NCBI GenBank assembly: GCA_021292105.1
Contig: CM037874.1
Coordinates: forward strand, 56,243,539 to 56,307,538
DNA length: 64,000 nt
Source of the DNA: Anadara kagoshimensis
Lineage: Eukaryota; Mollusca; Bivalvia; Arcoida; Arcidae
Direction: 5' to 3'
Position 1 is the first letter of the stretch. Every line of letters starts with the position of its first letter. Under the pieces are notes generated by a model. It saw only the letters and a list, made by a program, of their open reading frames with translations, was not told the origin of the DNA and made no database searches. Of the stretch, positions 9,658 to 59,154 are shown piece after piece. The translations under genes were made by a program, and so were the position numbers.

Positions 9658-10344
9658 CAAGCTGTCTTTTTCTAAATTGTAATTGGTTACAGCTAATCGA
9701 TTGTGCTCAAAGTTTCAAGAAGCAAGTAGGTGATCTGTTCGATCAAATTTCTGTAATTGTGGTCAAATGTTTACCAGTTATCTAGTGTTGACCGCTTAAA
9801 ATGAAATAATCCTGATTAAAGATTGTACTGATGTAAACTTGATTGTATCCCTGCTGTATTATATAAAAGTATGCTCTATATTCTAACTGTATATTTTATT
9901 ACATTAAATAAACTTCTTTTTTATATTTTTTTTACATCCTTAATGTCAAAAACAACCAATTATTGATGACACTTTGTGTACTTAACTCTCTAAACCATTT
10001 GCTAATATCATCTTGTGTATTGAACTCTCTGAAGGATTAGCAAATATCAATGTGTGTTCTAAAACTTTCCAGAATTATCCAACATCAAAAATGAAACGTA
10101 TATAATGTTGTATCTTAAAAGATTATGCAGGTGGTGATTTATTTAAATCCAGGAACAATACACACCAGAAGTTTATTGATTTGACATTTTATAGTGCATC
10201 TCTTTCCGATAGATTGGCAATTTGAGAGGACGACTGACCTTTAGCTTCTTACGTCTTTAAGCCTCATCAAACTATGAATGTTTAATCACAATCTATGTTT
10301 GAGACTTTTCAATATAAACAATTATTACTAAATCTGTTTTAATT

Positions 10345-10460
10345 TTGTAATACTAGATGTCCGTTTTGGAATAAATTCCTCATTTGTACTGCTTTGAAAA
10401 AAATATAGAAATCCAAAATATTTTTTAAGATGTATTTTACCACATCCATCTATGAGCTGT
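10345..10460 (-). ncRNA. Degenerate hammerhead-ribozyme module (S1-A)
   Basis: This is the same module as at 24375, with a damaged core. On the minus strand CTGATGAG reads CAAATGAG and the GAAA box reads CAAAA. The stem II arms (GGAAT/ATTCC) survive. Predicted inactive. Confidence 0.6.
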
Positions 10461-10820: not shown

Positions 10821-10942
10821 ATTCTCAATTTTGACTTCACACCAGACGGGTGTAGCTAGCAAAACAAGAGATGTTTACTCTTTCGGAGCACCTGACTACA
10901 CTTTCCTGGTGGAAGTCCACGTTTTGTTGTTTGTCTTTGATT
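10821..10942 (+). mobile_element. PLE 3'-tail (S1-A)
   Basis: The tail begins 'attctcaattttgac', then 'gacgggtgtagctagc', 'tttcggagcacctg' and the second hairpin 'ttcctggtggaagt', ending 'gtctttgat'. The segment between the second hairpin and the terminus is deleted. The C copy is at 45806; in B most of it is removed by a deletion. Confidence 0.8.
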
Positions 10943-11790: not shown

Positions 11791-11932
11791 TAATTACACA
11801 AGTAGCGGTTGTAGCTAGATAAACAGGAGGCACTTATCCTTCCGGACTGTCCGGACCCACGTGTCTGACCTAACCTTAAAGTTTTTAACTTTGCTTCTGG
11901 ATTGTTATTCGGAGTTTATGAGTTTGTTTGAT
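11791..11932 (+). mobile_element. PLE 3'-tail (S1-A)
   Basis: Contains 'gtagctagataaacaggagg', 'ccttccgga', 'cacgtgtctgacctaac' and the terminus GAGTTTGTTTGAT. The second hairpin has been lost. Counterparts lie at 32421 and 46770. Confidence 0.8.
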
Positions 11933-12004
11933 TTTTATTACAATGGTATTGAAATTCCTTAATCTAAATTTGAATTACAAACTATAACAGTGTTAATTTT
12001 AAAG

Positions 12005-12120
12005 CACCAAATGGCCTATTTCCTTATCAGTAGTGCTTGGGCCAAAATTGCGAAATCTTTTTGTTCCAAAGGGTTTTAAAAAGTACTGAAACCAGAAATT
12101 GATTATTTTCTAAACAAACC
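12005..12120 (-). ncRNA. Degenerate hammerhead module (S1-A)
   Basis: The flank 'agtagtgcttgggccaaaat' matches the module at 24375. The core reads CTGATAAG on the minus strand, and the stem II/GAAA part is replaced. Relic only. Confidence 0.55.
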
Positions 12121-13653
12121 AGATTCTTGTTATTTTTTCATAAAAATTGTAATCCCCAATGGCACCGGGATAGGCCTACACGTTGTTATGCAATGTGTGA
12201 TATGGAATAAAATATAGTTGCACATATCCCGTGAGATTAATCTGTTAGTCCGTTACATATATGTTTTTTTGATATCAGTGTTGCTTATTTAGCACAATAA
12301 AGAGTGTCCAGATGCATGTGATGATATCACTACGACATTCTAGATGAGCATCTGATATTTAAATAAACAGTTATATATTTTGAACATCATACAAGGCTAT
12401 ACGTTCATTTATATTTCTCTCTTTACTGACAAAACTTTTGATGTCACACCTTATATCCATAGTATATCCATCTTCTCTCATAATTAACGATCGGGATAAT
12501 CTCTTTTTTTGAGTAGCTATATACCGCTACAGAAAGAAGCCAGCAGAAAATACCAGTGATCTTAAGTAACGCTTACTTTGACAAATCCCTAGTTACAAAA
12601 TACTTTTGCAAAACAATGGCGTTACCTAACACTACATCATTTAGTCAGGTGAAAAACGACGTGTTTCTTAAGACCATTTCACCTCAAATGCACCTTTGTG
12701 GTAGTGGATATAGAATCACTTGTAAGCAGTAAGAATAAAGAAAATAAGTAGTATTAATGCCTTTAATATTCCGTTACAAAGATATCCTCATGGATATTTT
12801 GATAATAATTACAGTAAAAATCCACCATACTACTTTGTAATACTAAACAATCAATACTTAAACGTAACACGTATCTAATTACATTAGCAAGACCAATAAA
12901 CATTAATACGGAAGAACAAAAATAATTTTACACTTAGGCCTACAGACTGCTACCAAGTAAACAAGTAAACAAGGTTGTTTATGATCAAAAGTGTAACAAA
13001 TGTTGGATAATTAAATGGATAAAACAGAATCAGGACGTATTGTCCTTGTAAATACATCCTTTATTCAATAACTGACATTTATAAGCAATCAAACTAATGT
13101 TCATTGACGTTATGGTGGTAATTTCAAACAGTTTAGAGAATGACAAAATAGAATTAAACAATCTATAGACTAGGAAGGAATTAAGATATACGCAATTAAC
13201 TATATTGACTTGTAAGAAAGTGTAAAAATAGAATTAAACGATCCAAAAAGAATAAGGAACATGAAATAAACTATGTCGTCCTACTTTCAAGAGTATTTTC
13301 CAAATTTGCTTAAGTGTTTATGTAGAGATGATTAATGAATACAGAAACTAGAGATAAGCTATGTTGACTTGTTTGTCAGAGGATTTTCTAAGTTTGTATC
13401 TAAAGTGACTATATGATGGTGACAAGAATAAAGATATTGAGACATTCATTGTTTTTATCCCTTGTTTTTCAACAATAGGGTTATTTATCCCGATGTTTGC
13501 TTCAAATGAAAGTTATCTAATATCAATTTACAAATCCGTCTCAAAGCGATTCTATCTTGCCTTTAGTTATTGCTATGTAGAGATAATGACAAACCTTTAA
13601 AATATCCGTTACCTTTACAATTCTGGCTAGGGAGAGTCTAACTAAACATAAAA

Positions 13654-14025
13654 TCAAACACAGATATATCAATCTATGTTCAGGTCTCATTCTGAAAGCA
13701 AAGTAAAATAACAAACAACAAATAAACTAATTCATGCCCAAATCACAATCCTAAAGCAATGTAAAATATTGAAACTGGCAAATTAAATGATACATCCTAA
13801 CTTCCACAGGGAAGTGACGTTGGGTGTCGAGGAAGCTAATGTTGAGCTAGTTGTATCCGTCACGTGTGTAATCAAATTTGAAAACGAAAGTAACATGGAT
13901 CTAATGTACCTTAAATATATCCAAGACAATTTTGGATACAGATACATGATGCTTTTTTTGTTGTGACCACCATAAAACCTATTGATGGTCTTCATAAGCC
14001 TATGTTGGCAATATACCAACAATTA
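13654..14025 (-). mobile_element. PLE 3' fragment with duplicated tail end (S2-A)
   Basis: On the minus strand this starts inside the C-terminal RT codons, where 'ttggcaatataccaac' is antisense to the segment around 23345, runs through the stop region into the 3' tail, and then repeats the last ~60 nt of tail (13654-13712). The RT frame is broken by indels. Counterparts lie at 34175 and 48632. Confidence 0.75.
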
Positions 14026-14323
14026 ATTTCAAAGAAGTTTTGCTTCGTAATATTTGTGTACAAACTGTACAATCGACATAGAGATGATGAAAATGAAACC
14101 AGTATGCAAAAAATTCATGTATCGATATCCTACAGAGTCTTAACTACAAATATAAACTTATTTCATTAGTGGTATTTTCTAATTTTAATTCCAGTTATCT
14201 CAATAAACTGCATATCTGAATCAAATAGAAACATATAAATTCCTACACATCTGGATAATATCAAAGTTAAGCTAAAAATATTCCATGGACGTCTTAAAGA
14301 TAAACTTTCCATGTCGGGTTGAT

Positions 14324-14400
14324 GTAAATCAAAAACAAACATACCAATCTATGTCAAAATGATAATCCTAAAACAGGAATGTGATCATTTTGCTCCGTAA
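14324..14400 (-). mobile_element. PLE 3'-tail terminus (S2-A)
   Basis: This short solo tail begins at the canonical terminus ATCAAAAACAAACATACC (plus strand) and is truncated shortly after 'gctccg'. It lacks the region between the terminus and the hairpins. Confidence 0.7.
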
Positions 14401-15240
14401 TTGTAAAATGTACCTATGTGTGAAACATTGATAAAGAACATTGAATAGCTAAGGCATGTCCAAAAGGATTCAAACAAATTAAAATAAACCTATTTATCTT
14501 TAGGAATATCAGGATAATTGAGTTGATAAGCATATTATTTCTATTTGAAATTTCGGCTATGTCAATAATCAGCATAATTAAGCTACCCAAATACAAATTT
14601 TATATACAGCGCATCTGCTTGTAATCCGCTTTATCTTCTTGTTTTATATTCTTTGAAACTTTATAAAAATAATTGGTTTTACATCAGGGTTCTTACAAAA
14701 TTGGATACTACATATTAAAAACCTCCATACAACATCAAATACATAGTACAGATGCACCTGTTGTTGCTATTTATCGCATATTCTCTTTCAGAGTCAATAT
14801 CTGCTAATAACATCTCAAGAAGATTTGAAACAAAATATCTTGTCTAAATAAAAATAGGAAGATATATCTAGTTGATGTTTTCCATATTTATTAGCAGTTT
14901 TATTGCCTCTTGATTTTGCTTATTTGGTATTTTGCTGCTTTATTAAAATGCTATACATGTACATAAACCTGCTTTTTAATATCAGAAGATAGCAAGATGG
15001 CATACTTCTTGCATTTAACGATCTTATAAAATAAGAAATTTTCCAAACAAGTAGTATCTTGACGATTAATTTCCTTAGAATGTCTAATAATGGCAATGGT
15101 GAACCATTAATAATCATTGATGCACTATTAATGGGGCATTAGATAAATTAAAGAGATTGTGTCTGTTATATATGTGGAGTTAATTAGAAGTATTAAATTC
15201 GAAAATATGGAATAATAACATTAAATATGTCTGCATATAT

Positions 15241-15350
15241 TTATATCAAAACATACATACAAATCCATGTTCAAATCACAATCTCAAAGCAAAGAAAAAA
15301 CTATGAAACTGGTAGAAAACAAAGTTTTAAACACATGAACTGTCCAAAAT
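15241..15350 (-). mobile_element. PLE 3'-tail adjoining a SINE (S2-A)
   Basis: The tail terminus (ATCAAAACATACATAC, plus strand) runs to 'acacatgaactgtcc' and abuts the 3' side of the tRNA-derived SINE. The B copy at 37637 keeps more of the hairpin region. Confidence 0.7.
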
Positions 15351-15590
15351 GGTATAATAATTACGTTATGCTTCCCAGTCTTTGTTTTATATGTATATTG
15401 TCAACTCAAGAATGGTGAAGTAAACCGGAGTACCTGGTACCTGGAGAAATCCACCGGCCTTTCACAATCACAATGCCAAATTTTCTCACTCTAGGACATG
15501 TCAGAGCGGGATTTGTACCTAACCGATTAGAGGTGTCGGGATCTATGTGTCTGTGTTTTATCCAACATGGTTACATAGCACTTTTAAGGT
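15351..15590 (-). mobile_element. tRNA-Leu-derived SINE (S2-A)
   Basis: The tRNA-like head lies at about 15505-15583. In this copy the B box is mutated (GGTTAGGTACAAATCC). The body carries a central-domain-like segment, CAGGTACTCCGGTTTACTTC on the minus strand. Homologous insertions are at 37771 and 50328. The B copy has the clearest tRNA promoter boxes. Confidence 0.7.
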
Positions 15591-16261
15591 AAAATTGGCC
15601 TGACAATGGAAAAATTGTCAAACAGATGAATTGGTATGTATATTGTATCTGAAAAGTACCATCTAAAAAATATCTAACCATTTAATTAGACATCATATAC
15701 GTTGGCATTTGCATTTTCATTTGTCAATCATACAAAAACATGCCGGGTAATGTAAAGTCTTTTAAAATGACTATGTTATACAAAAGTGATTAATTCATTA
15801 AGAATTTTACAACGTCTTATATTAACTGAATAAATACAAGAAAGCAGCATTAAGCATATTTAAATTGTCTCTTAAATGTCTGATGGATTATATAATGTCG
15901 ATGGAACATTTATATTGCCAAATGAGCGATATATAAATAAAAATCAATAAAAAGAGAAAAGGGCGATTTCTTTATTTTGCTGTTATTTGTTTTATGATTG
16001 GTTTCTTTTGTGTCGTTATCTTGGTTCTATTAGTTATCGCATGTTTTTATTTGCAAATTTTCGCTTCCTATTATAGACAAGAATTCACCATCGACGACGA
16101 CATTGAGCTGATTGACTTCTTAATATTTGGTTAATCATGTTTAAAGATTAAATTGTACACCATTGTCCTTAAAAATACTTGTATTTTTGTCTCGACCTAA
16201 TGTCTGTGTCGTTAGCTTACGAATTTTGGTAAAAAATATGTTGAAAGTACAAAGAGGATAA
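15591..16261. other. S2-A spacer carrying a lineage-specific deletion
   Basis: No gene or mobile element is seen. Near 15965 the sequence jumps from 'gagaaaaggg' to 'tgttatttgttttatgattg', which are separated by about 790 bp in copy C. Confidence 0.6.
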
Positions 16262-16395
16262 CAAACATACCAATCCATGTCCAAAAAACTCAAAATACAC
16301 AGCTAAAACTTTAAAACTAGTAAATTAAGTAAAACACACAATTTTCAATAAACAAATGAGGTCGTGTGATCCAGAAGAGTAACAACTGGTATGCA
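16262..16395 (-). mobile_element. PLE 3'-tail (S2-A)
   Basis: Begins 'acaaacataccaatccatgt' and contains 'atgaggtcgtgtgatccaga', the decayed equivalent of the gtgaggccgggtgctccgg segment. Counterparts lie at 39170 and 52029. Confidence 0.65.
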
Positions 16396-17296
16396 TGTTA
16401 TCATTCTTAGCATAAAAAACAGTTGTTTCTGATATATTGAAAAAAACAACCATACCGGTTTCAAAACGAAATAAAAGGAATAAAGTAAAAACTTTTAAAA
16501 AAAGAAAAAAAATAGTTAAACACGCGAACTTATTATTTTTTTCTGAATCCATATTGAATAAAATTTAACGATTAAATGGATTCAAACTTGTAAATGTGTA
16601 ACAGTCTGGTTTCTTTAAAATCGGGACAAAGCAGTGTCTTGCTTATATCGATCTGATAAAATGGGGAATAACGCCGGATTAATAGCATGTCAACGATTAA
16701 TTTTCTTAGACTTTTTCATAAGTGACGGATCATTATAAATCATTGACACACGCATCGTGGTGTATTAGGTAAATTGAAAACTGAGCTGACTTTAAAAGCC
16801 TTATGTAATGTGTAATGAGAGTATCGTATTCAAAAATGTTGATATTAATTCCATGTTACATTTAAATTAATTGAAATTTATTTATTTTGGTCTAAAACGT
16901 GAAATGAAAAGATCTGAAAAAAATCGAACAAAACGAGAAGATGTACTATAAAAGATTGGTACTATATTAGGGAAATCATATTAATCACTGTGAAAGGTCA
17001 AGGCATGTATTGCGATTAACGTAAGGACATTTACACCAATAAAATGCCTTAAATATTATTTATATGTAACATTGTTTGCTGCAATAACTCAGTAAGGTGT
17101 GAGCATATATTGACATCCAAAAATTTCAAGATAAAAATATAGAAATTGTACCTGAATAAAATTTACTTTTTAAAATCCAAAATGTAATGCAACCATCATT
17201 ATTTAAAGAAAAAAAAGAAACATTCACACATTAAAGAAAGAGGAGAACTGGTGTCGTCTGATAAAATCTGATATTGTGATATTTTTAATAAATGAA

Positions 17297-17446
17297 ACTC
17301 AAACAAACATAGCGTTGTATGTCCAAATGACAATCCAAACAGCAAAACTAAAACGTAAACTTAATTTAAACACGCGTATTTCCACCTAAGAAAATGAAAA
17401 TTGTTGCTCTATGAGGGTTTGAACCTCCTGCCTAGCTGGTTACACC
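17297..17446 (-). mobile_element. PLE 3'-tail, highly decayed (S2-A)
   Basis: Shows 'caaacaaacat..cgttgtatgtcc', 'acctaagaaaatgaa' and 'cctagctggttacacc', in the order of the tail. The string 'ggtttgaacc' looks like a pol III B box, but it sits where the tail has 'gggtaagcacc', so it is coincidental. Confidence 0.6.
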
Positions 17447-17732
17447 AACCATGAGGGAAATACAGTTTAGTTTTATAATAATATAAAGTTAAAAAGTTTG
17501 ACAGTAACTTAGGAAGTAGATTAAGGTTAATATTTAATGCAAATCAGAAATGGATCTAGACGCTGTCTATCCTTACGTTAAGTAGTGTTGTGAGAAATAA
17601 ATTTCCTATAAATGCTGTTGAAGCTTCTGTATCACATTATATATTATAAATTGTTTCGGAGACGGAAACCATAAAATTTTCCCTTGACGTCACATGTTCC
17701 TTTTAGTCTCAATTTTGGTTATATACGTTGAG

Positions 17733-17890
17733 GTGTAGCTAGCTGAACAGGAAATGCTTAGCCTTCTAGAACACCAGGTTTTTATTTCCCTGGTGGAAGC
17801 TCACTTGTTAAAGATCATTTGCTACCTCCTTTCAGCTAAGATTTCACATTTCTTTGCCATTGTATTGGATAGGTACGTTTGTTCTTGATT
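17733..17890 (+). mobile_element. PLE 3'-tail at the S2/S3 border (copy A)
   Basis: This tail carries 'gtgtagctagctgaacagg', 'ttccctggtggaagc' and the full terminus GGTACGTTTGTTCTTGAT. The equivalent tails at 29146 and 43533 lose the last ~18 nt at 'attggata', where they join S1. This tail is therefore the intact reference for the recombination joint. Confidence 0.85.
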
Positions 17891-18552
17891 ATTCGACATA
17901 GTGACTTAGCTTTTGACATTTAATTGAAACATAATAAATGTAATGCAATATGTAATAAATGAGCTTTATATTAAATTTACTGCAAAATTAATATTTAATT
18001 TGATTTTATTTTGCCTTTTGGCAATGGTTTGCCAATTGATGAACAAATTACATTTAGTTTAAGAGATTTCATCAGTTGCGTAAATGTCCCTCAGGCCAAC
18101 CTTAGAAGTTAGTAATCTAATCATTGATTTACTTAGACATTGTAGAAAAATGCAAGGTTTGTTATACAAGTCTTAAGTTACAAAAATATTGAAAAGTTTT
18201 ATGTTAATATAAATATCTGAGTGTAAATCTATCTTATTTGGTTTAAAACAATTGCCTTTGGTGGAATAAAATTTTGGGATTTCTATCTTTCTCATTTCAA
18301 TAGTTTAAAACCTATTTTGTGATCAGAACACTGACTAGGAATTTACATCCGAAACAGATGCCATTGCTGTTAAATTAAAACAGATTCAGAAAATTAATTT
18401 AAGCATAGTACATGTCAAATATTCGTAATCGGCTTAAAATTTTCAACAAGGGGTTGTTTTAGTATATTTATATGAATTACTTAATAGAACTCATCAATGT
18501 ATCATTGTTTAGTGTTTGTAATGAACATAATGTTACATATTTCACAGTGGCT

Positions 18553-18800
18553 TGTGTATCTAGCTTAAGCAGTCTCACTTCCCTGGTTGTAATTCGCATG
18601 TCTAACCTGACTTGTCAGTTCAATAGGATTTTACTGTGCTTCTTGATTGTGATTCGGAATACTACATTTGTTTTTGATTACCAAGAGAGATGCTTACCAT
18701 TCTGGAGCATCCAGTCTCCCTTCCTTAATCTAAGTTCACATGTTAAACTACATTAGTCAGTTTTCAAAGTTTGTTTTACTGTTTTTTTTAATTGTGACTG
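18553..18800 (+). mobile_element. Two PLE 3'-tails head-to-tail (S3-A)
   Basis: The first tail (18553-18678) ends in the canonical GTTTTTGAT. A second truncated tail starts immediately, with 'agatgcttaccattctggag' and 'cacatgttaaac'. The 94-codon open frame across them is repeat-derived. The C copy is at 54410-54660. Confidence 0.75.
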
Positions 18801-18927
18801 TAATGTTTAGAATATACATGTATCTTCAAGTGTTCATTGACATATTGTCAGTCTTGTTTTGAGTTAATCATCAATGTTGTTTTTCAGACTTAACATTCAG
18901 CGACCATGTAAAACTATTCACCCTAAC

Positions 18928-18985
18928 ATCAGCAAAATATCTGGTTGTTCATAATTTTTGTCTGAACTTTATGATGGGGGATAAA
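18928..18985 (+). ncRNA. Hammerhead-module flank relic (S3-A)
   Basis: The sequence 'catcagcaaaatatctgg..tttttgtctgaac' matches the module flank upstream of the ribozyme. The core position reads 'tatgatggggg'. Only the flank survives. Confidence 0.4.
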
Positions 18986-20021
18986 AAACTGAAAATGTAT
19001 GTTTTTTAACTTTTCACAAAAAAGTAACAGTTATCTGTTTATCTGTTTTTGTCTCAGAATGTAATACATTATATATATAAAACGTTTGTTGAATATTTGA
19101 TCAGTTTTTTGTAAAATAAGTGGACCAACATATCTACAACTGGACATTTGCTCCAGCACTTGCTCAACGTCATGCATTTTATTATCTGTTGTCGCAATAA
19201 TTGTTTATTATTTTTATTTATTGTTCTATTTGGATATTTTATTATTTACTTGCATTTAATTTGTGTCATATTTTTGTATGCTTCTCCTGTTGCCAAGTAC
19301 ACGTTTTTAAAATCTAATTTTTAAATTAAAATTATTATCAAAATTTGGGATGACAAGATTCCTAAAAATGTACTTAAATAATTTTACTTAATATCACATT
19401 TCTCTTATACGCAAACTTGTCAAATATTCAGAACATTGTAATAATCAGTTGTCTTTGTTTTTGTTTACATTGGTCTTGTTTTTTAAATACTTTCCTGTAT
19501 CCTTCATTGTTGCTTAAGGTATTGTAATCTACAAATCATAATTGAATGTAGAAATAATTGTTTACTTGCTTACCGTTTCGTCGATTTTCCGACACACACT
19601 ATCTGTTTATTATGAAATTAATCTGTTATCTTAATTACTTCCCTTTATATGTACCAGACTATTAGAAAGATAAGAATTGATTGATAGGTAAAGTCAGTGT
19701 TATTCGTGTCTGGACAAAATATAATTGATAGTCATGTCAGCGAGGCAGTATTTCAATCAATTTATGATCAATGAATGTCTCACTAAAACTACATTTTGCA
19801 TGAAATCTCTGAAGAGACTGATTAATTCACAAATGTATATAAATGAGAGATATATATTCTCACACGACGTGTGACATGGGAACCCTTATTTTTGCCCGTG
19901 TGGCACTTTCTTGTCTCACCCTAGGGTTGAGAGAGGGTACATGCTACGCCCGAAAAAAGAGCTGTTATCTGTGACCATAGAAGCTTTTAATGGATTTTTA
20001 AAGGAATAAGGTATGAAAAAA
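18986..20021. other. S3-A spacer
   Basis: No gene is recognised. A 13-nt palindrome, CACACGACGTGTG, lies near 19861, and its C counterpart is retained near 55694. Confidence 0.45.
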
Positions 20022-20147
20022 GAATCAATCGTTACTTGCCATATGTGATGGGGAAATCGCAACCATCGGTCTTATATGTTTGATCGAGAATGAGGCTTGC
20101 CTTCGGTTGCGATTTCCCTATCTCATATGACCAGTAGAAATAGATTC
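20022..20147. repeat. Imperfect palindrome 1 (S3-A)
   Basis: The core arms are 'catatgtgatggggaaatcg' (from 20040) and its inverted partner ending at 20129, with 23 of 25 positions pairing. Weaker pairing extends outward to GAATC/GATTC at 20022 and 20147. It is a hairpin-capable foldback of about 126 bp. An open frame on the minus strand here is a by-product. Confidence 0.75.
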
Positions 20148-20607
20148 TATTTTCTCGCATAGGTGACAGATTAGTCTCACGGCATAGGTGGTACAATATT
20201 TTTTTTATATCGCACCCCGCATGAGCGCGTGTAGGGTATCTCGGTACAACGGGGATTACTTTTTTAATAGTAGCAAGGGGCGTTACTCGTGATACGAAGG
20301 ATATCATAACATATTAAAACTATTTTCCTAACAACTGATTTCAATAGTTCTTTTTATATTTTATTATTATCTGTTATAAAAATATAATTTTGACCAATAA
20401 ATGTTAAAAACTAAAAATATATTTTGTTGTTATTTGTTATCGCGTAGGTCAACATTTCTGCACTGATTAAAACGTCATTGATGACGTTACAATTTTACGT
20501 AATACTTGTATTCAACGGCTGGCAAAATTTTTGTACTGTAGTAGGAAATTTTAATGTCTTTAGGCTTCAATTAGAATTTATATGCGACAAAAATAATCAA
20601 TTACTTG

Positions 20608-20718
20608 TTCCAGACCGAAGTAAGGAAATTCCAATCTCGTGGTCAGTTATTTTTATTTCAAACGGTTGAGATGAAATATCTGACCACTAGACTGGAATTT
20701 CCTTGTCTCGGTCTGGAA
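20608..20718. repeat. Imperfect palindrome 2 (S3-A)
   Basis: A ~111-bp foldback runs from 'ttccagaccgaagtaagga' to its inverted partner ending 'ctcggtctggaa'. The central part ('tggtcagttatttttatttc' against 'gagatgaaatatctgacca') carries more mismatches than the C copy at 56595. Confidence 0.8.
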
Positions 20719-21949
20719 TTCGTTATAGAGTCTCTTTCGATGACACAAATAGATGATACGCCAACGAATACAAATCAATTACAAAGGAATTATCATATAA
20801 ATGCATTCTATAATTTTATCCTATCCAATATTTAAAACGAGCGTTATTAAATTATTTCAAATAGCAGGTACCTGCGTTGCTACAAGTCCCTATATATTAC
20901 GTTATAATTTTTTCTTGTGTCCCTTTAACTTGTTATATAGTACAGACATGTCAAAAGTTTAAAACTTACTCAGGAAAAGGAGTTGACGAAAGAGATGGGG
21001 ATAACAGTTGCCGAGATATTGAGAACCAGGGGCCAATCTGAACTGTCGATTTTGTACTAGTTCGTTAGCTTAGTGTTAAACTTTCGATAGGTCTGTACTG
21101 TAGCTGTAACCCGATTCTTTTGTTACTGACTAAATGGAAATTGATTTTCATTTAAGCTGTATATCTAGTTAATCAGTCATTTATTAATTTTTTTGTTTTC
21201 TTTTACATGTAATTAAAATCTAGATTTCTGCTCTTTTAACCTTCTTTATCACAGTCTACATCATTTGCAAACAACATTGCAATGCTATAGTGCTCTTGAG
21301 GGTCATTGGTCAAGCCGGTGGAAATATATGTTATTACAGTCAATACCACAAGTGGCTTCAACTCTTTGAAATTAGATAATTATATGAAAAGCAACGTGGA
21401 GTTAGTAAAACCAGAAACAAAACCAGCTAACCATCTCATGTTATATTAAAGATGTTAATATACTTCATAATCAGTATATTGTTTTTATATTACAGCGAAT
21501 CTGGCAAATTATACAAATTATACGGCGTTTTTATTTTCGCGCCCTGGTCAACTATTGAAAAACTGCACTAAAATTAAATACAGGGGACTTAAATTAATTT
21601 GCAAAATCAGTATTGTGTTAGAATGACCTGCGGTCGTTCAATTTGTAAAGTAAAATTGCAAAAATAAATATTCGATCACAAAAATTATATGAAAAATTGG
21701 CAATTGTATGGAAATACTTGTTTAAATATATAACGTGTGTGTGCATCGGAGCCTAATATTTGGTAGTTGTTCTATTCATAATACAAAAATATTACATATA
21801 AAACAAATAAAATTTGATTTCAAGTCCTTGATAAACAGTACAGAACGCAATATTTTCAGCCATCTAAAAGATCCGGGTGTATGTTACCACGAGGATCTCA
21901 CAAACTCAGTAATAGTTGTGTATTATTGTCAGAAAAATTTACAATTGTC
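20719..21949. other. S3-A spacer
   Basis: No gene or repeat is recognised. It is paralogous to 56705-57914. Confidence 0.5.
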
Positions 21950-22132
21950 TGGTTGAAACCAAGGTATACCCCCTCATGCAAAATATTTCCTTGGCTAGAT
22001 TCGGTAATGTATATTTTGGTCATTTGTGACATCTTTTCATTATCTTGGTAAAAAAGTTTTGGTTTCACAATTTTGGTCCAAGCAATACTGTTGAGAAACT
22101 GTATTCCGAAACAGTTGACTAGTATTGTAAAA
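21950..22132 (+). ncRNA. Degenerate hammerhead module (S3-A)
   Basis: The full module is present: 'cctcatgcaaaatatttcc', 'ttttggtccaagca', then the ribozyme region with core CTGTTGAG, a weakened stem II and GAAAC present. The expected GTC cleavage triplet is GAC. Predicted inactive. An open frame on the minus strand spans the module in both S3 copies. Confidence 0.65.
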
Positions 22133-22529
22133 CTATAACTAAATAATATGTAATTACGATACATCACCACAACAGAAAAAACAAAACCGAAGAAATTCGA
22201 ATCTTCTCTGTCATTAGGGTCCATACACATTTAGATGGTTATCAGCGTTATAATTACATGAGTAAAAAATATTGCACTATGCTAACCAATAAAAAAATGC
22301 AATGGTAATCTGAAATACAACAGGAAACCGTTTTCGTCACATATATGAAAACTTTGAATTAATTGAAAAAAACTATATCGTAATCTAATATGTTTATTAA
22401 TTAACTTAAAACTGATAAGATTCGAAAAATAAATATAAAGCAAAGAAAACGATTAGGTAATAGTTAGAATGAATGTCACTCAACCCGGAAAAACTATTTT
22501 AGACAAACTATGTTTTGAATATCAATCAA

Positions 22530-23483
22530 ATGTGGATTCTCAAAAATTCTAAAGAATTACTTGAACATCTTGCTTCTAATACTTTATCTCATGTAAAAAG
22601 TATAAAAACATTTGATTTTTCTACACTATACACCACAATCCCTCATTCTAAATTGAAAGAACGTCTTAAAGAAATTATTCACTTGTCTTTCTTCTACAAA
22701 AACGGTAAGCCAAGATACAAATATCTGGTGCTGAACAGGGATTCTGGTTATTTTGTCAAGCATCATACGGATTCCAAACAAAAATATACTGAAGATACCA
22801 TCAACAAAATGTTGGAGTTTTTGATAGATAACATATTTGTTGTGTTTGGTAATATAGTTTTTCAGCAAACAATCGGTATACCAATGGGTACAAACTGTGC
22901 ACCATTGCTTGCTCATTTGTTTCTTTATTCTTACGAAGCAGAATTTATGCAGAACCTTGTTAAATCTGGAGAGAAAACTGTCGCCAAATCATTCAACTCA
23001 ACATACAGATACATAGATGACGTTCTGTCTATTAACAATCCTAAATTTGGAGACTATGTAAATGTCATCTATCCTAGTGAGCTTGAAATAAAAGACACGA
23101 CTGATTCCTCAAGTTCTGCTTCATATTTAGACTTATACCTGAATTATGACGCACAGGAAAGGATACATTTGAAACTTTATGACAAACGTGATGACTTCAA
23201 TTTTTCTTTTGTCAACTTTCCCTTTTTATGCAGCAATATACCTGCTTCTCCTGCTTATGGTGTATTTGTTTCCCAATTAATACGCTATGGTAGAGCTTGT
23301 TCCCACTACGGGGACTTTGTACAACGAAGTAGGCTGCTTGCAAATAAATTGTTGACTCAGGGATATTGCAAGCCTAGGCTTATCAAGGCCCTCAAAAAGT
23401 TTTATGGCCGTCATTGCATTATTGTTGATAAGTTTGATGTCTCTGTGTCCAGGATTGCCTTGGATATATTTGACGTCTCATAG
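22530..23483 (+). CDS. Reverse transcriptase, Penelope-like, N-terminally truncated
   Basis: Begins at the first ATG of the frame and encodes 317 residues. The RT palm motifs are in order: FDFSTLYTTIP at about residues 28-38 (motif A, first catalytic Asp), GIPMGTNCAP at 116-125 (motif B), and YIDD at 161-164 (motif C, two catalytic Asp). A conserved C-terminal block follows, with LYDKRDDF and NFPFLCSNIP. The frame stops soon after (DIFDV) with no GIY-YIG endonuclease, so the element either lacks one or carries it N-terminally in the missing part, as in domain-permuted PLEs. The fingers are incomplete, so an active enzyme is unlikely. No promoter is visible. Older fragments show that the stop and 3' UTR positions are conserved in the family. 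Confidence 0.85.
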   Translation: MWILKNSKELLEHLASNTLSHVKSIKTFDFSTLYTTIPHSKLKERLKEIIHLSFFYKNGKPRYKYLVLNRDSGYFVKHHTDSKQKYTEDTINKMLEFLIDNIFVVFGNIVFQQTIGIPMGTNCAPLLAHLFLYSYEAEFMQNLVKSGEKTVAKSFNSTYRYIDDVLSINNPKFGDYVNVIYPSELEIKDTTDSSSSASYLDLYLNYDAQERIHLKLYDKRDDFNFSFVNFPFLCSNIPASPAYGVFVSQLIRYGRACSHYGDFVQRSRLLANKLLTQGYCKPRLIKALKKFYGRHCIIVDKFDVSVSRIALDIFDVS

Positions 23484-23682
23484 TTCCATGTTCCTTTCAC
23501 ACAATTTTGATTACACACGTGACGGGTGTAGCTAGCTAAACAGGAGGTGCTTACCCTTCCGGAGCACCCGGGCTCACTTCCCTGGTGGAAGTTCACGTGT
23601 CTAACCTAACTTGTCAGTTCCAAAGTTTTTACTTTGGTTTTGGATTGTGATTCGGAAATGGATAGGTATGTTTGTTTTTGAT
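23484..23682 (+). other. PLE 3' UTR with two stem-loops (family reference)
   Basis: This is the reference for all solo tails. Hairpin 1 is GGTGCT/AGCACC (23546-23568, 11-nt loop). Hairpin 2 is ACTTCC/GGAAGT (23576-23592, loop CTGGT). They follow the box 'gggtgtagctagctaaacag'. The region ends GTATGTTTGTTTTTGAT without poly(A). Preservation of the box, hairpins and terminus in solo copies suggests recognition by the element's own RT (inference). Confidence 0.75.
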
Positions 23683-24374
23683 CACATGTGTAATACATAG
23701 CCTTTAGGATTTTTATTTATTTTTTATTATTTCATCAAAACTAATCAAAAGACATTTTTAATTGAAAACATGCAGCCAAAGCAACAAAGTAACCGACACA
23801 AATGAAACAAATGATAAAAACGGCTAAACAAGACAAGAAAGGACAAAATGAATGCATGTATCATAAGACTTTCAATGTGGTTATAATGAAAGAATATAAT
23901 CGTAGTGGCGTAAAATTAACTATCTAAAATGCTAGCCAAAACAAACACTTTTCAGAAAAAATCCAGTTTAAAACATCAAATAGTATTTATTAATGGTAAG
24001 TTTTTTATTTTATTTGTTTTTGAGGAATGTGTTATATGTGCTGGATACATTGAGCAAGGCAGAAGAAAGATATCATCAGAATAGTTAATGTGTTTTAAAA
24101 ATAGTATTAGTGTGACTTAGAGTCTTTATAGACAACATATAAAATCTGTATTGTTATACATTTTGACACCAAAATGTTTGGTTAGAATTAGGAAAAATTC
24201 CGACATTTCTTGAAAATATATTCAGATTACGCAATGACTGAATTTGATAACTTTACAAATAGATACACTCAATTACAAGAAATTAAAGAATCACGCACAA
24301 AAAAGATTAAATCGGTCACAATTATTTGAAAACTGAATTTGTTTTGTAGTATTACATATCATATCAGTTTTAAT

Positions 24375-24435
24375 TTTCCAGAACTAGACGGCCGTTTCGG
24401 AATACAATTCCTCATCAGTAGTGCTTGGACCAAAA
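24375..24435 (-). ncRNA. Hammerhead ribozyme, type I, intact core
   Basis: On the minus strand all invariant parts are present: CUGAUGA (24418-24412), stem II GGAAU/AUUCC closed by loop UGU (24411-24399), GAAA (24398-24395), palindromic stem III CGGCCG (24394-24389), and the GUC cleavage triplet ending at 24387. Stem I forms from ACUA/UAGU, an internal loop, then UCC/GGA. Predicted cleavage is between 24387 and 24386. With so short a stem III the monomer would be weak, and the palindrome favours a dimeric form, as described for PLE and retrozyme hammerheads. The surrounding module extends to about 24555. Copy C lacks this segment. Confidence 0.87.
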
Positions 24436-24704
24436 TTGTAAAATCAATATTTTTCAAGATATTGAAAAGATGCCCAATGGACCGAATTTTTACCAGATTT
24501 ACCTAACGAAATACTTGCATGAGGGAATTTACCTTTCTTTTTTAGAAATTAAAATTTTAAGATCTAAGGAACCACAAACATAACACAAATATACCCGTGA
24601 ACAAATAAAATCAAAAAGTCAGCATGCCATTACGTATTTGCTTGAAAAGCCGAAAAACCTGCAATAGCTTTTACTGATAGTAGCATTAATAAATAACAAT
24701 TATA

Positions 24705-25100
24705 CCAGTTCATTTTCAAATGACAATCCCAAGGCAAAGTAAAAACTTTGAAACTAGCAAATTATATGTTAAATATGTGCAATTCCACCAAGGAAGTGAG
24801 GCGGTTTGCTCTGAGAAGGTCAGCATCTCCCATTTAGCTAGCCTAGGCTTACAACATACCTGTGTGTCAACAATTTCTTTGTAAGCACTTTGATTCGTTG
24901 TATACAATCTTAATAGTGGGAACAAGCTCTGTCTTAGATTATTATTGGTGAAACAGATACACCATAAGCAGGATAAGTAGGTATATTGCTGCGTAGAAAA
25001 AGGAAAATAGATCGTGAAGTCATCACATTTGTCATACAGCTTTAAATGAAGCCTTTCTTGTGCCTCAAAATTGACATACGTGTCCAATATGAAGCTGCAC
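24705..25100 (-). pseudogene. PLE RT C-terminal fragment plus 3' tail (S4-A)
   Basis: The minus-strand frame encodes AQERLHLKLYDKCDDF and continues through a degenerated NFPFLCSNIP region, with frame damage, into the tail (24705-24860: 'agtgaggcggtttgctctga', 'cccatttagctagcc'). It lacks motifs A-C. A decayed hammerhead module lies on its 5' side (25525) and the intact one on its 3' side (24375), in the same orientation. Confidence 0.8.
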
Positions 25101-25524
25101 TTAAAGAATCATATATCTTGAAATAAACACATTATAAAAACTGCGGTAGAAAATAATATCAATGAAATTTCATGACAAATTGCCTCATAAAACATAATTT
25201 ATATTACTTTTATAAGATGGGTCCAAAATCATTTCATTCAAAATTTTAATTTCATTTGAATATATGACTATGTAATGGAAACATACTAGATTAATTTATA
25301 GTTTATACACCTGAGTATGAGTATAAATTTGAAAAAAGAAATAGCTGAAATTATGGTACAAAGAAGTTTCTTCGTTAATTCATGGATGCTTAGGAAAACC
25401 CCAGTTGTGGCCAGTATTTTTCAGCTTCTATGATAAGAGCATGCACTATTGTTGTAGTTTTTGTAATGAAGAATGATTTTTGACTTTTCTGACTAAAATA
25501 ATTATTACTAAACCTGCTTCAATT

Positions 25525-25690
25525 TAGCGTACTAGACGTCCGTTTCGAAATTAAATTCATCGTAAGTAGTTTTCGAACCAACATTGTTAAAATTCAAATA
25601 TTGTTAGAAGATGAATTCAAAAAAATAGAAGAACTATGCATTTTACCAAATCCACTTAAGGCAATACTTAGAACGATTAAGCATAGCTTA
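25525..25690 (-). ncRNA. Degenerate hammerhead module (S4-A)
   Basis: On the minus strand GAAACGGACGTC and the GTC site survive, but CTGATGA reads ACGATGA. The flank has 'ttcgaaccaacattgtt', 'accaaatccactta' and 'ggcaatacttagaac', matching the 24375 module. Confidence 0.65.
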
Positions 25691-26422
25691 GATTACATAT
25701 TAAAAATTCAAGACGCAGATAATATTGATGAACAATGTTTATTTGATAATACTATGTAATACCTCCTTGGTTAATAATATCGTTGAGATGCTTAGTCAAG
25801 CAGGTATCCACCATGTTTAATGAAAGAATACAACCATTTTTTGTAGTTAATTAAATGCATTTAAATTTGATCTGCGAATTATCAACTTGAACGCAAGAAT
25901 GAAAATGTTTTACGATTTTATAAAATATTCCCTAGTATTATTACATTGGTATCTATCCTTAAATAAACTATTTCAATGTTTTAACTGCATCAAAATTGCA
26001 ACAGAAAGCAGAATAAATATTATGCAATAATGCTTAGATAAAAACCTTTTATTAAAAAGCATGAATAAAACAATTTTGCTTTGATTATGTTGTTTTGGAA
26101 ACAATAATGATGAATTCATTGCAATACGACCCTACTGCACATCAATAGAAATAGCCCGAGGGAGTTGTGATTGTATTTAAAATGAATAACGACAGGCGTA
26201 CTGCTTGAAACGTTTCTATTTGTATGCAGTTTATTATTCATACACGTAGAGAGACTTGTGGATATTTTAGTTCGCTTTAAATACAAACTTTACATGACTA
26301 AGGAGTGCTTTCAGCTAAAATAGGTGTTAAAGACAAATTGTTGTGACATAAATGTCGCATTTGTTGAAAACAAAATATCATTTAATAATTATCTTGCTTT
26401 TATCCTTAAGAATAAAAACAAA

Positions 26423-27005
26423 ACTGATTCCTCAAGTTCTGCTTCATATTTAGACTTATACCTGAATTATGACGCACACTAAAGGTTACATTTGAAACTT
26501 TATGACAAACGTGATGACTTTAATTTTTCTATTGTCAACTTTCCTTTTTTATGCAGCAATATACCTGCTTTTCCTGCTTATGGTGTATTTGTTTCCCAAT
26601 TAATACGCTATGGTAGAGCTTGTTCCCACTACGGGGACTTTGTACAACGAAGTAGGCTGCTTGCAAATAAATTGTTGACTCAGAGATATTGCAAGCCTAG
26701 GCTTATCAAGGTCCTCAAAAAGTTTTATGGCCGTCATCACAGTGTTGTTGATAAGTTTGATGTCTCTGTGTCCAGGATTGCCCCGGATATATTTGACGTC
26801 CCATAGTTCCATGTTCCTTTCACACAATTTTGATTACACATATGGCGGGTGTAGCTAGCTAAATAGGAGGTGCTTACCCTTCCGGAGCACGCCGCCTCAC
26901 TTCCCTGGTGGAAGTTCACGTGTCAAACCTAACTTGTCAGTTCCAAGGATTTTACTTTGCTTCTTGATTGTGATTTGGACATGGATTAGTATGTTTGTTT
27001 TTGAT
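26423..27005 (+). pseudogene. PLE RT C-terminal fragment plus 3' tail (S4-A)
   Basis: Starts abruptly at 'actgattcctcaagttctg', equivalent to the RT codons just after YIDD, and runs to the canonical tail end. An in-frame TAA at 26480-26482 replaces a Glu codon of the AQER segment. The rest reads openly (LYDKRDDF, NFPFLCSNIP) to the normal stop. Its C4 paralogue (60862) lacks this stop but has a different one. Confidence 0.88.
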
Positions 27006-27106
27006 TATCAAATTTTTAAACTTTCAGAAACAAGAAACAGAAGGATTAAAACTTAAAAGTCACTTCAGGTATATAGGGATATTTTCTGCCATGTTGGAAT
27101 GATAAA

Positions 27107-27510
27107 ACAAGCAAAGTAAAAACTTTAAAAACGTCAAAACAAAGTTTAACACTAACTTTCTACAGAAAAATAAGACCAAGCATAAAGCATCCAACATTTT
27201 TATATTTTCGTTACGTTCACTGAATCACGGTGTATTGGTGAATGTTCCATTTTGGGTTTTTGAAAAAAATAATCCTTACCATTTCCGAGATGTTTTGGCC
27301 GGCAATAAGGATGGATCTTGCTTTAGATATAAAACAAACCCCAAAAATCAATCCAAAGTTAGAATTCCAAAGAAAAGCAAAAACTTGGAACCTTTCAAAT
27401 TAACACATGGACTTCGACAAGCGAAGTAAGACCGAGTGCTTCGAAACGATAGGCACCAAGAAATAAATTCGTTCATTAGTCATTCTGTTTAGCTAGTTAC
27501 ACCCATTTTC
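27107..27510 (-). mobile_element. Two decayed PLE tails, nested or tandem (S4-A)
   Basis: One partial tail (27107-27180, 'gcaaagtaaaaactttaaaa..gtttaac') and one longer tail (27335-27510, 'caaagaaaagcaaaaacttgg', 'gtttagctagttacaccc') share orientation and are separated by about 150 bp of other sequence. The open frame at 27235 follows the repeat and has no recognisable domain. Confidence 0.6.
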
Positions 27511-28833
27511 ATTAAATCTTATTATATCTCTTAAGTCTGGAGTTTTACATTAAGCGATTTTAATAAATGCATATTCTGATTCTCCTGTGTTTTTTGGTTT
27601 CCGGTTGCTTTGTCATCAGCTAGACATTGATTATATATGAAGTTAATCACATGTATCTATACAAAGAAAATTGTTTTTAAAAAAAACATTAGAAATGATA
27701 TTACAGATTTGGCTCTACCAAAGTAAAGATTTATACATCCCGACTTAATTAAATTTGTATAGAAATAAATTTATGTGAAATGTCAACCAAATATTGCTTA
27801 AGCAAACTATATGAAATTCGAATCTATATTCTAAATTGAATTCTATTTACGGAATCATAAATAGTCTAAAGCTAATATGATTTAGTATTTTGTGGTAATA
27901 AATATTCTAGAAGACACGATTAAATACCATATGGATGAACAAAATGAAAACAATAATAATGTGCACATATAACATCATGACATACAGGTAAATCTATCGC
28001 GAAAATAACGGCTGATTCATTTCAAAGTGGTATTAAAACGAGATTAATCATAAAACAAAATACAACTCCATGTCAAAATTATAATTCCTATTCAAATCTA
28101 TCCGTCTCTAATTTCAAAATAATTTCTTAACTAATATTTTTCTTAACTTAAATCTGATAAATCTAAAGTTTAAATAATTATGTTAGTTTAAATATATTTA
28201 TTAATATAAGTTGTCATTCAAGATCACTCAAGACTTATCAGATCTGTATTCGAATTTTGCTGAAATATTTTTTAGTTCCATCAAATAAGCAAAATTTAAG
28301 TTAAGGGCAAACTTAGTCTACAAGGAATGATTGTGAAACTGGGACCAGTATTGAAATATTCAAAAAGTATTAAAAGTTTCATTTTAAGCTTCATAAAGAT
28401 CTTTTAAGCAGTATTTTATTCGTGTAATTTAATCTAGGAGCGATGCTGTGTTTTATCTAGCTGTGGCATGATATTAGCTGTTTGATCTCTTACAACTGGG
28501 ACATAAACCTGTCGTTTAATAATGTAATTTTATCAGATAATCCCTTATGAGGCAATTGCTGAAGCAGGTGGTTTAGTGTTACAAAGTGACAATGATCTGC
28601 GCTTCTTTTGCCTTCATACTAAAGAATATCTATAGAAGAACAATTCTAATTACTTGTTTTTTTATATCTTAACGATATTTTATCATAAATAATCAACAAC
28701 ACTTTATAAATTGTATATGTGCGTCTCAATATTGCACATATTGCAACGAGGCTTTGTTATTTCTTTTAAAAATGTTTTAACTTTTACCGAATAAGTGTTG
28801 ATGGTCCCATGTTGTCATATACTATGGAATGCA
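27511..28833. other. S4-A spacer to the duplication breakpoint
   Basis: No gene is recognised. It is closely paralogous to 61951-63277, and similarity stops at 28833. Confidence 0.55.
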
Positions 28834-29289: not shown

Positions 29290-30064
29290 CAAAGTAAACA
29301 TTTTCGTCAACATTCTTAGTGTATATATTAAGTAATATTACTTGTATAACTTGTGCAAACAAATGTTTTATTTGCAAATCTATGTTCATTTTTGTAACAA
29401 GTCAAGCGACTTTTCCATAGCTTATTATGGTACATGTAGCCGGAAGCAAGAGTGTTATAAGAACGTTGCGTAACGAACTTAACTGCACTAAACGGTACCA
29501 TTGTTGTTTACACCCTGCACTGATTACGATGATAGGAAATTTGTCTCTAAATCATTAAATCGTGCTGTGATGGATTTTTGTGATATTGGCAATCTTATTT
29601 AATTTGATTTGACTTCTGATGTATAGCAACATTTTATAACTGAGCTGCGTGTTATCTTAAACATTAATTAATGGCATCAATGTGGCTGAAATATCAGAGT
29701 TTATATATCTATACAAACAAGTTTACGAAACACAAATACTTCTATAAGTAAACAATATTGACCTGTCGGCTTATCCTTTAATTTAAATACATATTATGGA
29801 CAAGTGCATCTTTGTTATGGGATCACAGGTGTTTATTTCATCAACATAAATTCAAAGTGTCAACGTCTGTAGTGAGTACCCGCTATTTTAACACTATCCG
29901 TGTATTGGTTTGTCATTCTACATGGATCTCTCTTATGAAAGGTCAAGCGGACAGGTCAATGTTGTTTGCCTTTACCACTATTATTGATTAGTTTATGCGT
30001 TTTGATTGGAATGAACCATAACAATGAATTCAAATTTCCTAAACCGAATAACACATCAAGAAAA

Positions 30065-30300
30065 AATGAATGCCAATTTCCGTTTGACTTTTGCTCTAAT
30101 TTACCAATTCGTTATAACTTTTAAAATATAAATGCAAACTTCCGTTTGACTATTGCTCTAATTAACCAATACGTTATGACTTTAAAAATGAATGCAAATT
30201 TCCGTTTGACTTTTGATCTAATTTACCAATATGTAACGACTTTCAGAAAAACAAATGTAACCTCCTGTTTGAACTTTAACCTAATTAATATCTGGAACAA
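30065..30300. repeat. 60-bp minisatellite, ~4 units (S1-B)
   Basis: Units with the core 'tttccgtttgac' are spaced about 60 bp. A 78-codon frame reads across the later units because 60 is a multiple of three. It has no flanking gene structure. Confidence 0.85.
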
Positions 30301-30640: not shown

Positions 30641-31149
30641 GCAAGTGAACTGACAAACTATTTGTCTGAATTGTGATTGGTTACACAGAGTTTTAAAGAA
30701 TCATATAGGTAATCTGTTCGATCAAATTTCTTCAATTTTGGTCAAAGGTTTTACTCCAGTTTTGACAGCTCAAAGTGAACCAGATTACAGATTTTATGAT
30801 GTAAATTACTTGCACTTGTATCTCTACTGTAATATATAAATACTGAACTCTCTAAAGGAATAGCAAATATCAAATATCAGTCTGTGTTCTAAATATTATC
30901 CAATATCAGAAAATGTTTCATCTTTATGACTTATGCAGGTGGTGATTTATTTGAATCCAGGAACAATACACAACAGAAGTTTATTAATTTGACATTTCAT
31001 AGTGAATCTCTTTCCGATAGATTGGCAATTTGATAGGGCGACCGATCTTTAGCTTCTTACGTCTTTAAGCCTCATCGAACTATGAATGTTTGTTATCACA
31101 ATCTATGTTCAAGACTTTTCAATATAAACAATTATTACTAAACATGTTT

Positions 31150-31270
31150 AAATTTTGTAGTACTAGACGTCCGTTTTGGAATTAATTCCTCATTATTACT
31201 GCTCTGACAAAAATATAGAAATCCAAATATTTTTTAAGATGTACTTTTACCACATCCATCTATGAGCCGT
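31150..31270 (-). ncRNA. Degenerate hammerhead module (S1-B)
   Basis: The minus strand keeps the GTC site, CGGACG and stem II GGAATTAATTCC. CTGATGAG reads ATAATGAG and the GAAA box is CAAAA. Paralogous to 10345 and 45310. Confidence 0.6.
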
Positions 31271-32616: not shown

Positions 32617-32720
32617 CAATTAATGGCCTTATCAGTAGTGCTTGGGCCAAAATTGCGAAATCTTTTTTGTTCGAAAGGGTTTTAAAAAGTACTGAAGCCA
32701 AAAATATTGATTATTTTCTA
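32617..32720 (-). ncRNA. Degenerate hammerhead module flank (S1-B)
   Basis: The core region has shrunk to 'tggccttatcagtagtgctt'. Stem II and the GAAA box are gone. Paralogous to 12005. Confidence 0.5.
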
Positions 32721-45309: not shown

Positions 45310-45430
45310 AAATTTTGTAGTACTAGACGTCCGTTTTGGAATTAATTCCTCATTATTACTGCTCTGACAAAAATATAGATATCCAAATATTTTTTAAGAT
45401 GTACTTTTACCACATCCATCTATGAGCCGT
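45310..45430 (-). ncRNA. Degenerate hammerhead module (S1-C)
   Basis: Carries the same damaged core as 31150 (ATAATGAG, CAAAA), as expected for the B-like half of this S1 copy. Confidence 0.6.
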
Positions 45431-46921: not shown

Positions 46922-46984
46922 TTATTACAATGGTATTGAAATTCCTTAATCTAAATTTGAATTACAAACTATAACAGTGTTTTT

Positions 46985-58122: not shown

Positions 58123-59154
58123 AACTAAATAATATGTAATTACGATACAACACCACAACAGAAGAAACAAAACCGAAGAAATTAGAAGCTTCTCTGTCAA
58201 TAGGGCCCCTACACATTTAGATGGCTATCAGCGTTATAATGACATGAGTAAAAAATATTGCAATATGCTAACCAATAACAAAATACAATGGTAATCTGAA
58301 ATACAACAGGGAACAGTTTTCGTCAGATAAATGAAAACTTTGAATTATTTGAAAAAAACTATATCGTAATCTAATATGTTTTTTAATTAACCTAAAACTG
58401 ATAAGTTTCCAAAAATAAATATAAATCAAAGAAAACGATTAGGTAATACTTAGAATGAATGTCATTCAACCCGGAAAACTATTTTAGACAAATTGTGTTT
58501 TGAATATCAATCACATGTGTCATACATAGCCTTAAGGATTTTTTTATTTTTTATTTATTTCATCAAAACTAATCAAAAGACATTTTTAATTGAAAACATG
58601 CAGCCAAAGCAACAAAGTAACCGAAACAAATGAAACAAATGATAAAAACGCATAAACAAGACAAGAAAAGACAAAATGAATGCATGTATCATAAGACTTT
58701 TAATGTGGTTATAATAAAAGGATATAATAAATCGTAGTGGCGTAAAATTAACTATCTAAAATGCTAGCCAAAACAAAAACTTTTCAGAAAAAATCCGGTT
58801 TAAAACATCAAAACGTATTTATTAATGGTAAGTTTTTTATTTTATTTGTTTTTGATGACGGTGTTATATGTGCTGGAAACATTGTTGAGCAAAGCAGAAG
58901 CAAGATATTATCAGAATAGTTAATGTGCTTTAAAAATAGTATTAGTGTGACTTTAGAGTCTTTATAGACAACATATAAAATCTGTATTGTTATACATTTT
59001 GAGAAATTAAAATTTAAAGTTCTAAGGAACCACAAACATAACATAAATATACCCGTGAACAAATAAAATCACAAAGTCAGCATGGAATAACGTATTTGCT
59101 TGAAAAGCCGAAAAACCTGCTATCGCTTTTACTGATAGTAGCATTAACAATTAT

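What the first reader, a model, noticed from the sequence alone, without database searches (positions are those of the whole stretch)
24375..24435. Hammerhead ribozyme with complete catalytic core on the minus strand
All invariant elements occur in order: CUGAUGA, a 5-bp stem II with a 3-nt loop, GAAA, a 6-nt palindromic stem III (CGGCCG) and GUC, plus complementary stem I strands. That is seen directly. Established knowledge: Penelope-like elements and animal retrozymes carry type I hammerheads with minimal stem III that work as dimers. Inference: this locus, or a recently active relative, could yield self-cleaved or circular RNA.
Basis: partly seen in the sequence, partly recalled or inferred. 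Interest (0 to 1): 0.85.

Follow-up and report, generated by a model that had tools for sequence, protein, structure and literature searches.

The report
Truncated retrozyme fragment with intact ribozyme
The motif is real: it is one old, cut-short copy of an abundant animal mobile RNA element whose transcripts are expected to cut themselves, and sampled copies of the family elsewhere in this genome mostly end at one fixed point, which hints at how such elements are copied into DNA.

Summary
The hammerhead is at the stated place with all core elements; about 0.0007 are expected per window by chance. A window-wide Rfam search misses it; a focused one finds type I hammerhead RF00163 below the curated score (23.0 vs 34 bits, E 6e-4). 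The genome holds 7,233 matches to the core pattern against 11 reversed. The family is a ~338-bp AT-rich non-coding repeat that also forms head-to-tail arrays: an animal non-LTR retrozyme, a kind described in mussel, coral and axolotl (PMC7229834). The copy here is a 210-bp, 5'-truncated fragment (24351-24560) with one hammerhead, 88% identical to consensus and older than the surrounding duplication, so it should not make circles alone. It is not part of the nearby reverse-transcriptase pieces. Among 100 copies chosen by a 16-base tail, 88 stop near one point, 82 of them 35-42 nt past the cut site, while 5' ends scatter and at least 11 exceed one unit. That fits target-primed reverse transcription from a fixed internal start on circular or multimeric RNA. 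The helper enzyme is unidentified; cleavage is untested.

The parts
24351..24560 (-). 5'-truncated retrozyme copy: unit phases 158-338 then 1-36 (phase 1 = first base after the cut site), 0.64 unit, 88% identical to the consensus of copies sampled elsewhere
   Evidence: (row FOC)
24372..24437 (-). hammerhead domain including distal stem I (AATTTT 24437-24432 with AAAATT 24377-24372)
24387..24418 (-). hammerhead core CTGATGA..GAAACGGCCGTC; cut predicted 3' of 24387
24166..24350 (-). 185 bp beyond the retrozyme 3' end; not retrozyme; one other genome match (96%), next to the same retrozyme at C18:55.43 Mb; missing together with most of the retrozyme in the second duplicate
58997..59002 (.). matching point in the second duplicate, where about 24166-24543 is absent; read as a deletion because a third paralogue keeps both parts
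21961..22154 (+). older retrozyme relative, core broken (CTGTTGA); its duplicate is at 57938-58150
10332..10431 (-). older relative, core broken; duplicates at 31146-31240 and 45306-45400
25531..25669 (-). older relative, core broken; duplicate at 59970-60108
12020..12057 (-). short older relative, core broken; duplicates at 32627-32662 and 47006-47043

Best explanation
The site is a dead, 5'-truncated copy of a high-copy non-LTR retrozyme of about 338 bp. Shown by sequence: type I hammerhead, high copy number, tandem arrays, a common 3' end at about phase 37 and scattered 5' ends. Inferred: an array is transcribed; the hammerhead cuts the multimer; monomers are closed into circles (shown for mussel by others, PMC7229834); a reverse transcriptase supplied in trans is primed at the target DNA, starts at the fixed point about 37 nt past the cut site, reads back through the ribozyme and stops at random, sometimes after more than one lap, leaving 5'-truncated or tandem copies. 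A Penelope-like enzyme is the likeliest helper but was not identified.
For: Pattern count 7,233 vs 11 reversed. Five 338-339-bp units in L009, 99% identical to its first unit. Hammerhead-selected sample: 77 of 99 aligned segments end at phase 34-43; 12 of the 77 exceed 1.05 units; lengths of 63 single-lap copies over 70 nt do not differ from uniform (KS p 0.18). Tail-selected sample: 88 of 100 end near one point (84 of the 88 at phase 34-44, 4 at 47-56), 12 run on past it (9 to the limit of the comparison, 3 to phase 71-97), and 11 of the 88 exceed one unit, a lower bound because flanks were short. Genome-wide exact 16-mers: 9,115 just before the end point (phases 18-33), 1,464 just after (36-51), 1,897 at 88-103 (that 16-mer has a common variant base, as in L009). 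Copies that start at phases 45-104 carry at their 5' side the sequence that the 3' end lacks, so the end is a junction, not divergence.
Against: Clear target-site duplications were not found: 4 of 69 reach a score of 8 (control 0.84), and the one long case (L015) lies in a target that is itself repeated; a looser measure is only slightly above its controls (mean 5.04 vs 4.68, highest of 200 controls 5.0). No helper sharing the tail was found in the endonuclease-bearing loci examined. Stems I and II show no covariation beyond column make-up (93.7% vs 93.6% paired after shuffling). The hammerhead is not the minimum-energy fold of this copy or of the consensus, and a circular consensus folds no better than shuffled sequence (z -0.7), with stem II at probability 0.23-0.31. 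RNA, cleavage and circles were not tested. 22 of 99 hammerhead-selected segments end elsewhere.
Confidence: 0.82

Rival explanations
1. The hammerhead belongs to a Penelope-like retroelement whose reverse-transcriptase pieces lie on both sides of it in the window.
For: A reverse-transcriptase open frame (RVT_1, E 1.3e-5, 25.5 bits, below Pfam's cut-off of 29.6) lies at 22503-23483 and a minus-strand piece at about 24687-25111. Penelope-like elements carry hammerheads (PMC11167929).
Against: The 22.5-23.7 kb piece is absent from two paralogues, one of which (L090) keeps the retrozyme; the 24.7-25.1 kb piece is kept in the second duplicate, which lacks most of the retrozyme. Two joined consensus units hold no open stretch over 51 codons in six frames.
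Confidence: 0.05
2. Chance occurrence of a hammerhead-like string.
For: Sub-threshold in Rfam; not the best predicted fold.
Against: 0.0007 expected per window; 7,233 genome matches vs 11 reversed.
Confidence: 0.005
3. A SINE-like repeat with a fixed 3' end, spread by an ordinary LINE-type enzyme from linear transcripts; the ribozyme is a passenger.
For: Fixed 3' end with 5' truncation is also the mark of SINEs and LINEs (general knowledge). The fixed end lies past the cut site, and 93 of 100 tail-selected rows extend at least 1 nt across it, so most templates were uncut or re-joined there. No convincing excess of 5' ends at the cut site.
Against: Copies over one unit with a continuous length range and the arrays need a circular or multimeric template; the core is intact in thousands of copies.
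Confidence: 0.13

Closest known systems
Mussel (Mytilus galloprovincialis) non-LTR retrozymes, PMC7229834
   Same: Type I hammerhead, AT-rich repeat of similar size (about 350-390 bp there, 338-339 here), thousands of genome copies (about 5,000 there, 7,233 pattern matches here).
   Different: No mussel sequence was available, so sequence kinship is untested; the host here is unnamed. The paper notes target duplications larger than 4 bp when present; here they are mostly not seen. Its text has no occurrence of 'truncat' or 'junction'.
Penelope-like elements, e.g. Poseidon of Anolis, PMC11167929
   Same: Hammerhead upstream of an internal reverse-transcription start; tandem copies. From the paper's numbers the start lies about 85-92 nt past the cut (111-118 minus 26; my subtraction).
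   Different: Here the end lies about 37 nt past the cut; no protein is encoded; no tail shared with the GIY-YIG loci examined.
Plant LTR retrozymes, PMC4918200 (search listing only; features taken from passages of PMC7761336 and PMC7229834)
   Same: Non-autonomous, hammerhead-bearing, proposed circular RNA life cycle.
   Different: Plant ones carry type III hammerheads in long terminal repeats with 4-bp target duplications; here type I. Terminal repeats, primer site and polypurine tract were not searched for here.

Membership tests
Animal non-LTR retrozyme | type I hammerhead with intact core | tested here: met
   (RF00163, below its curated cut-off)
Animal non-LTR retrozyme | repeat unit of about 170-400 nt | tested here: met
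   338-339-bp spacing in L009, 338-nt consensus
Animal non-LTR retrozyme | low G+C (<45%) | tested here: met
   34.3% in the consensus
Animal non-LTR retrozyme | tandem copies, dimers to multimers | tested here: met
   met in the family (L009 5 units; 9 of 100 tail hits run at least 195 nt into a next unit); not met by the copy in the window (0.64 unit)
Animal non-LTR retrozyme | no protein coding | tested here: met
   longest open stretch 51 codons in two joined consensus units, six frames
Animal non-LTR retrozyme | lack of long terminal repeats, primer binding site and polypurine tract | not tested
   no search was made
Animal non-LTR retrozyme | linear and circular RNA with self-cleavage | not testable with these tools
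   no RNA data
Penelope-like element | reverse transcriptase (and GIY-YIG endonuclease) frame within the element | tested here: not met
Rfam Hammerhead_1 (RF00163) | score at or above the gathering cut-off of 34 bits | tested here: not met
   23.0 bits here, 28.1 bits for one of five units of L009

The most novel reading that the evidence does not exclude
Animal retrozymes are copied into the genome by target-primed reverse transcription that starts at one fixed internal point about 37 nt past the hammerhead cut on a circular RNA and may lap the circle several times; the fixed point is the recognition site of a Penelope-like helper, which would answer how and by whom these elements are mobilised.
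Probability: 0.4. Interest if true: 0.75.

Novelty: new member of a known kind. Interest (0 to 1): 0.5.

Why it matters
A review of these elements says that metazoan retrozymes show no conserved motif that would reveal the machinery they borrow (PMC7761336, passage seen). A sharp common 3' end with scattered 5' ends and over-one-lap copies gives such a mark: it defines the sequence that a helper must recognise and makes the question testable in vitro and by genome comparison.

Tried and rejected
Recent-insertion reading: the gap at 58997-59002 looked like an empty site; rejected because the paralogue L090 keeps both the retrozyme and the 185-bp neighbour and the copy is 12% from consensus while the duplicates differ by about 3-9%.

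Evidence of cleavage from 5' ends at the cut site: patterns with three mismatching bases before phase 1, 5 and 9 gave 50, 11 and 73 matches. Of 31 of the 50 that I fetched, 14 had no retrozyme upstream; of 9 of the 11, 2 had none; binomial p 0.002 at nearly equal exposure (exposures worked out by hand from base composition, flank factors confirmed). But the phase-9 control has the highest raw count and could not be sorted for want of letters, and in the tail-selected set 8 of 100 rows (7 loci, one an internal deletion, L126) start at phases 336-2 against 5 of 100 at phases 3-13. Inconclusive.

Helper search: 50 GIY-YIG matches among 150 scored of 248 candidates; 30 loci compared with the retrozyme (retrozyme copies near L095 and L109, a 28-nt piece in L106, a 19-nt match of E 0.03 in L116); three longer stretches: only weak matches of E 0.18 or worse, no hammerhead core. 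The shared-variant test of 14 multi-unit copies was mostly uninformative (L009 has 7 variants common to its repeated sites and 13 not shared). Viral and prokaryote collections: 0 exact matches to the 32-base core with one free base.

Calls to the genome search left unanswered because the machine was busy: 10, 15, 41, 43, 46, 52, 56, 58, 60, 62, 65, 67, 70-73, 76, 78, 80, 83, 87, 89, 92, 94, 97, 98, 103, 105, 107-109, 112, 113, 117, 120, 122, 124. The requests behind most of them were repeated until answered (from then on with loci 20 instead of 0). Never answered: the phase-185 16-mer (last tried), the phase-296 16-mer and the phase-331 control. Some repeats came sooner than a few minutes, and other questions were put to the tool in between; scripts were used wholly or partly to wait. 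Two papers were not held.

Full report
What is there. The minus strand at 24418-24387 carries a complete type I hammerhead core. It is not chance: 26 matches to a full descriptor in 4.98 Gb of simulated sequence, 0.0007 expected in the window. Rfam does not report it at curated scores nor in a 301-base stretch at E<=10, but does as RF00163 at 23.0 bits in an 81-base stretch. A consensus-like array, L009, gives a single hit of 28.1 bits for one of its five units, so the Rfam cut-off is strict for this family.

What it belongs to. The window is part of a 1,115-Mb genome in 36 contigs. The core pattern occurs 7,233 times there against 11 for the reversed pattern. At C1:309800-312600 five units of 338-339 bp follow head to tail, 99% identical to the first full unit. 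A 338-nt consensus from sampled copies has 34.3% G+C and no open stretch over 51 codons. These features match the animal non-LTR retrozymes of PMC7229834 (abstract, two named sections and passages seen). The host is probably a bivalve; this is my guess from the size and base composition of the genome and the mussel parallel, not a test result.

The copy in the window. It covers 24560-24351, phases 158-338 then 1-36, at 88% identity to consensus; the median of 70 segments of at least 150 aligned bases, this one included, is 95.7%. Window stretches 10018-28833 and 45001-63277 are duplicates in pieces at about 91-97% identity. The second duplicate lacks about 24166-24543, but a third paralogue at C18:55.43 Mb has the retrozyme with an intact core and the 185-bp neighbour, so the second duplicate lost them and the copy predates the duplication. 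At least four other loci in the window hold older relatives with broken cores. With one ribozyme and 0.64 unit, the copy should not release a monomer by itself (inference).

Not part of the neighbouring reverse-transcriptase pieces. The 22.5-23.7 kb piece is absent from the second duplicate and from L090, which has the retrozyme; the 24.7-25.1 kb piece is in the second duplicate, which lacks most of the retrozyme.

How copies end. Number the unit from the first base after the cut. All copies sampled for this come from the first 13.7 Mb of contig C1. In 80 stretches chosen by an intact core (nine of the roughly 100 places listed, the greater part with diverged cores, were left out and L075 missed its target), 77 of 99 aligned segments, the window copy included, end at phase 34-43, while starts are scattered. 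To avoid choosing by ribozyme, I took the first 100 genome matches to the 16-mer of phases 18-33: 88 end near one point (84 at phase 34-44, 4 at 47-56) and 12 run on (9 to the limit of the 200-base comparison, 3 to phase 71-97); 11 of the 88 exceed one unit, a lower bound. Some of these 100 look like duplicates of one another (same start and flank, e.g. L136 and L141), so they are not 100 independent events. Genome-wide, exact 16-mers fall from 9,115 before the end to 1,464 after it, with 1,897 at phases 88-103. Five of the 100 (L132, L134, L140, L150, L181) are inserts of only about 25-32 nt, and L155 is one of about 37.

Mechanism. A fixed 3' end with random 5' loss is the signature of reverse transcription primed at the target (established for LINEs and R2). 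The start lies past the cut site, so a linear monomer made by two cuts would give inserts of at most about 37 nt; longer ones need an uncut, multimeric or re-closed circular template, and over-one-unit copies need a multimer or more than one lap. Internal initiation downstream of a hammerhead is known in vitro for a Penelope-like element (PMC11167929, abstract and the section 'Main text' read). The genome has GIY-YIG and reverse-transcriptase-like frames of that kind by motif, for example a 762-aa frame at C15, but none shown to share the retrozyme tail. Target-site duplications are mostly absent or short.

Activity. Substitution rates in stems I and II (0.034-0.060) are below those of the flanks (0.126-0.129), but the 71 sequences were chosen for an intact core and the pairs show no covariation beyond shuffling. 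Thermodynamic folding does not favour the hammerhead, linear or circular. Whether any copy cleaves is untested.

Literature. The listings show no title or abstract start on fixed insertion ends of animal retrozymes; I opened only three of the listed papers (PMC7761336 by passages only), and most subscription papers are not held, so this is not proof of absence.

Noticed in passing
window 22526-23681: Insert with a reverse-transcriptase frame (22503-23483 stop to stop), absent from two paralogous sites, so young; shorter copies with the same 3' end at 26411-27005, 60850-61444 and, reversed, about 56413-56567: another family with a fixed 3' end and 5' truncation. From memory it resembles Naiad-type Penelope-like elements; not tested.
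   Followed up: partly
window 23505-23682: Parts of the last ~200 bp of that reverse-transcriptase insert recur at more than ten other places in the window at 66-97% identity, perhaps many short truncated copies.
   Followed up: no
window 10018-28833 and 45001-63277, partial third copy from about 29225: Tandem segmental duplication with insertions and deletions between copies; a further paralogue of part of it at C18:55.43 Mb (L090).
   Followed up: partly
window 30062-30243 and 44300-44469: Tandem repeat of about three 60-62-bp units, itself duplicated.
   Followed up: no
L123 (G000:C15:59519500-59524600): Inverted repeat covering nearly 5 kb at 99% identity, each arm with frames of 497 aa (bearing the GIY-YIG match) and 248 aa.
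   Followed up: no
G000:C2:10.7-12.6 Mb: Many same-strand retrozyme 16-mer matches, those at 10.73-10.90 Mb spaced about 14-23 kb apart, suggesting a retrozyme copy carried along in a large tandem array.
   Followed up: no
L126 and L143: Retrozyme copies with internal deletions of ribozyme sequence ending at or next to the cut site.
   Followed up: no
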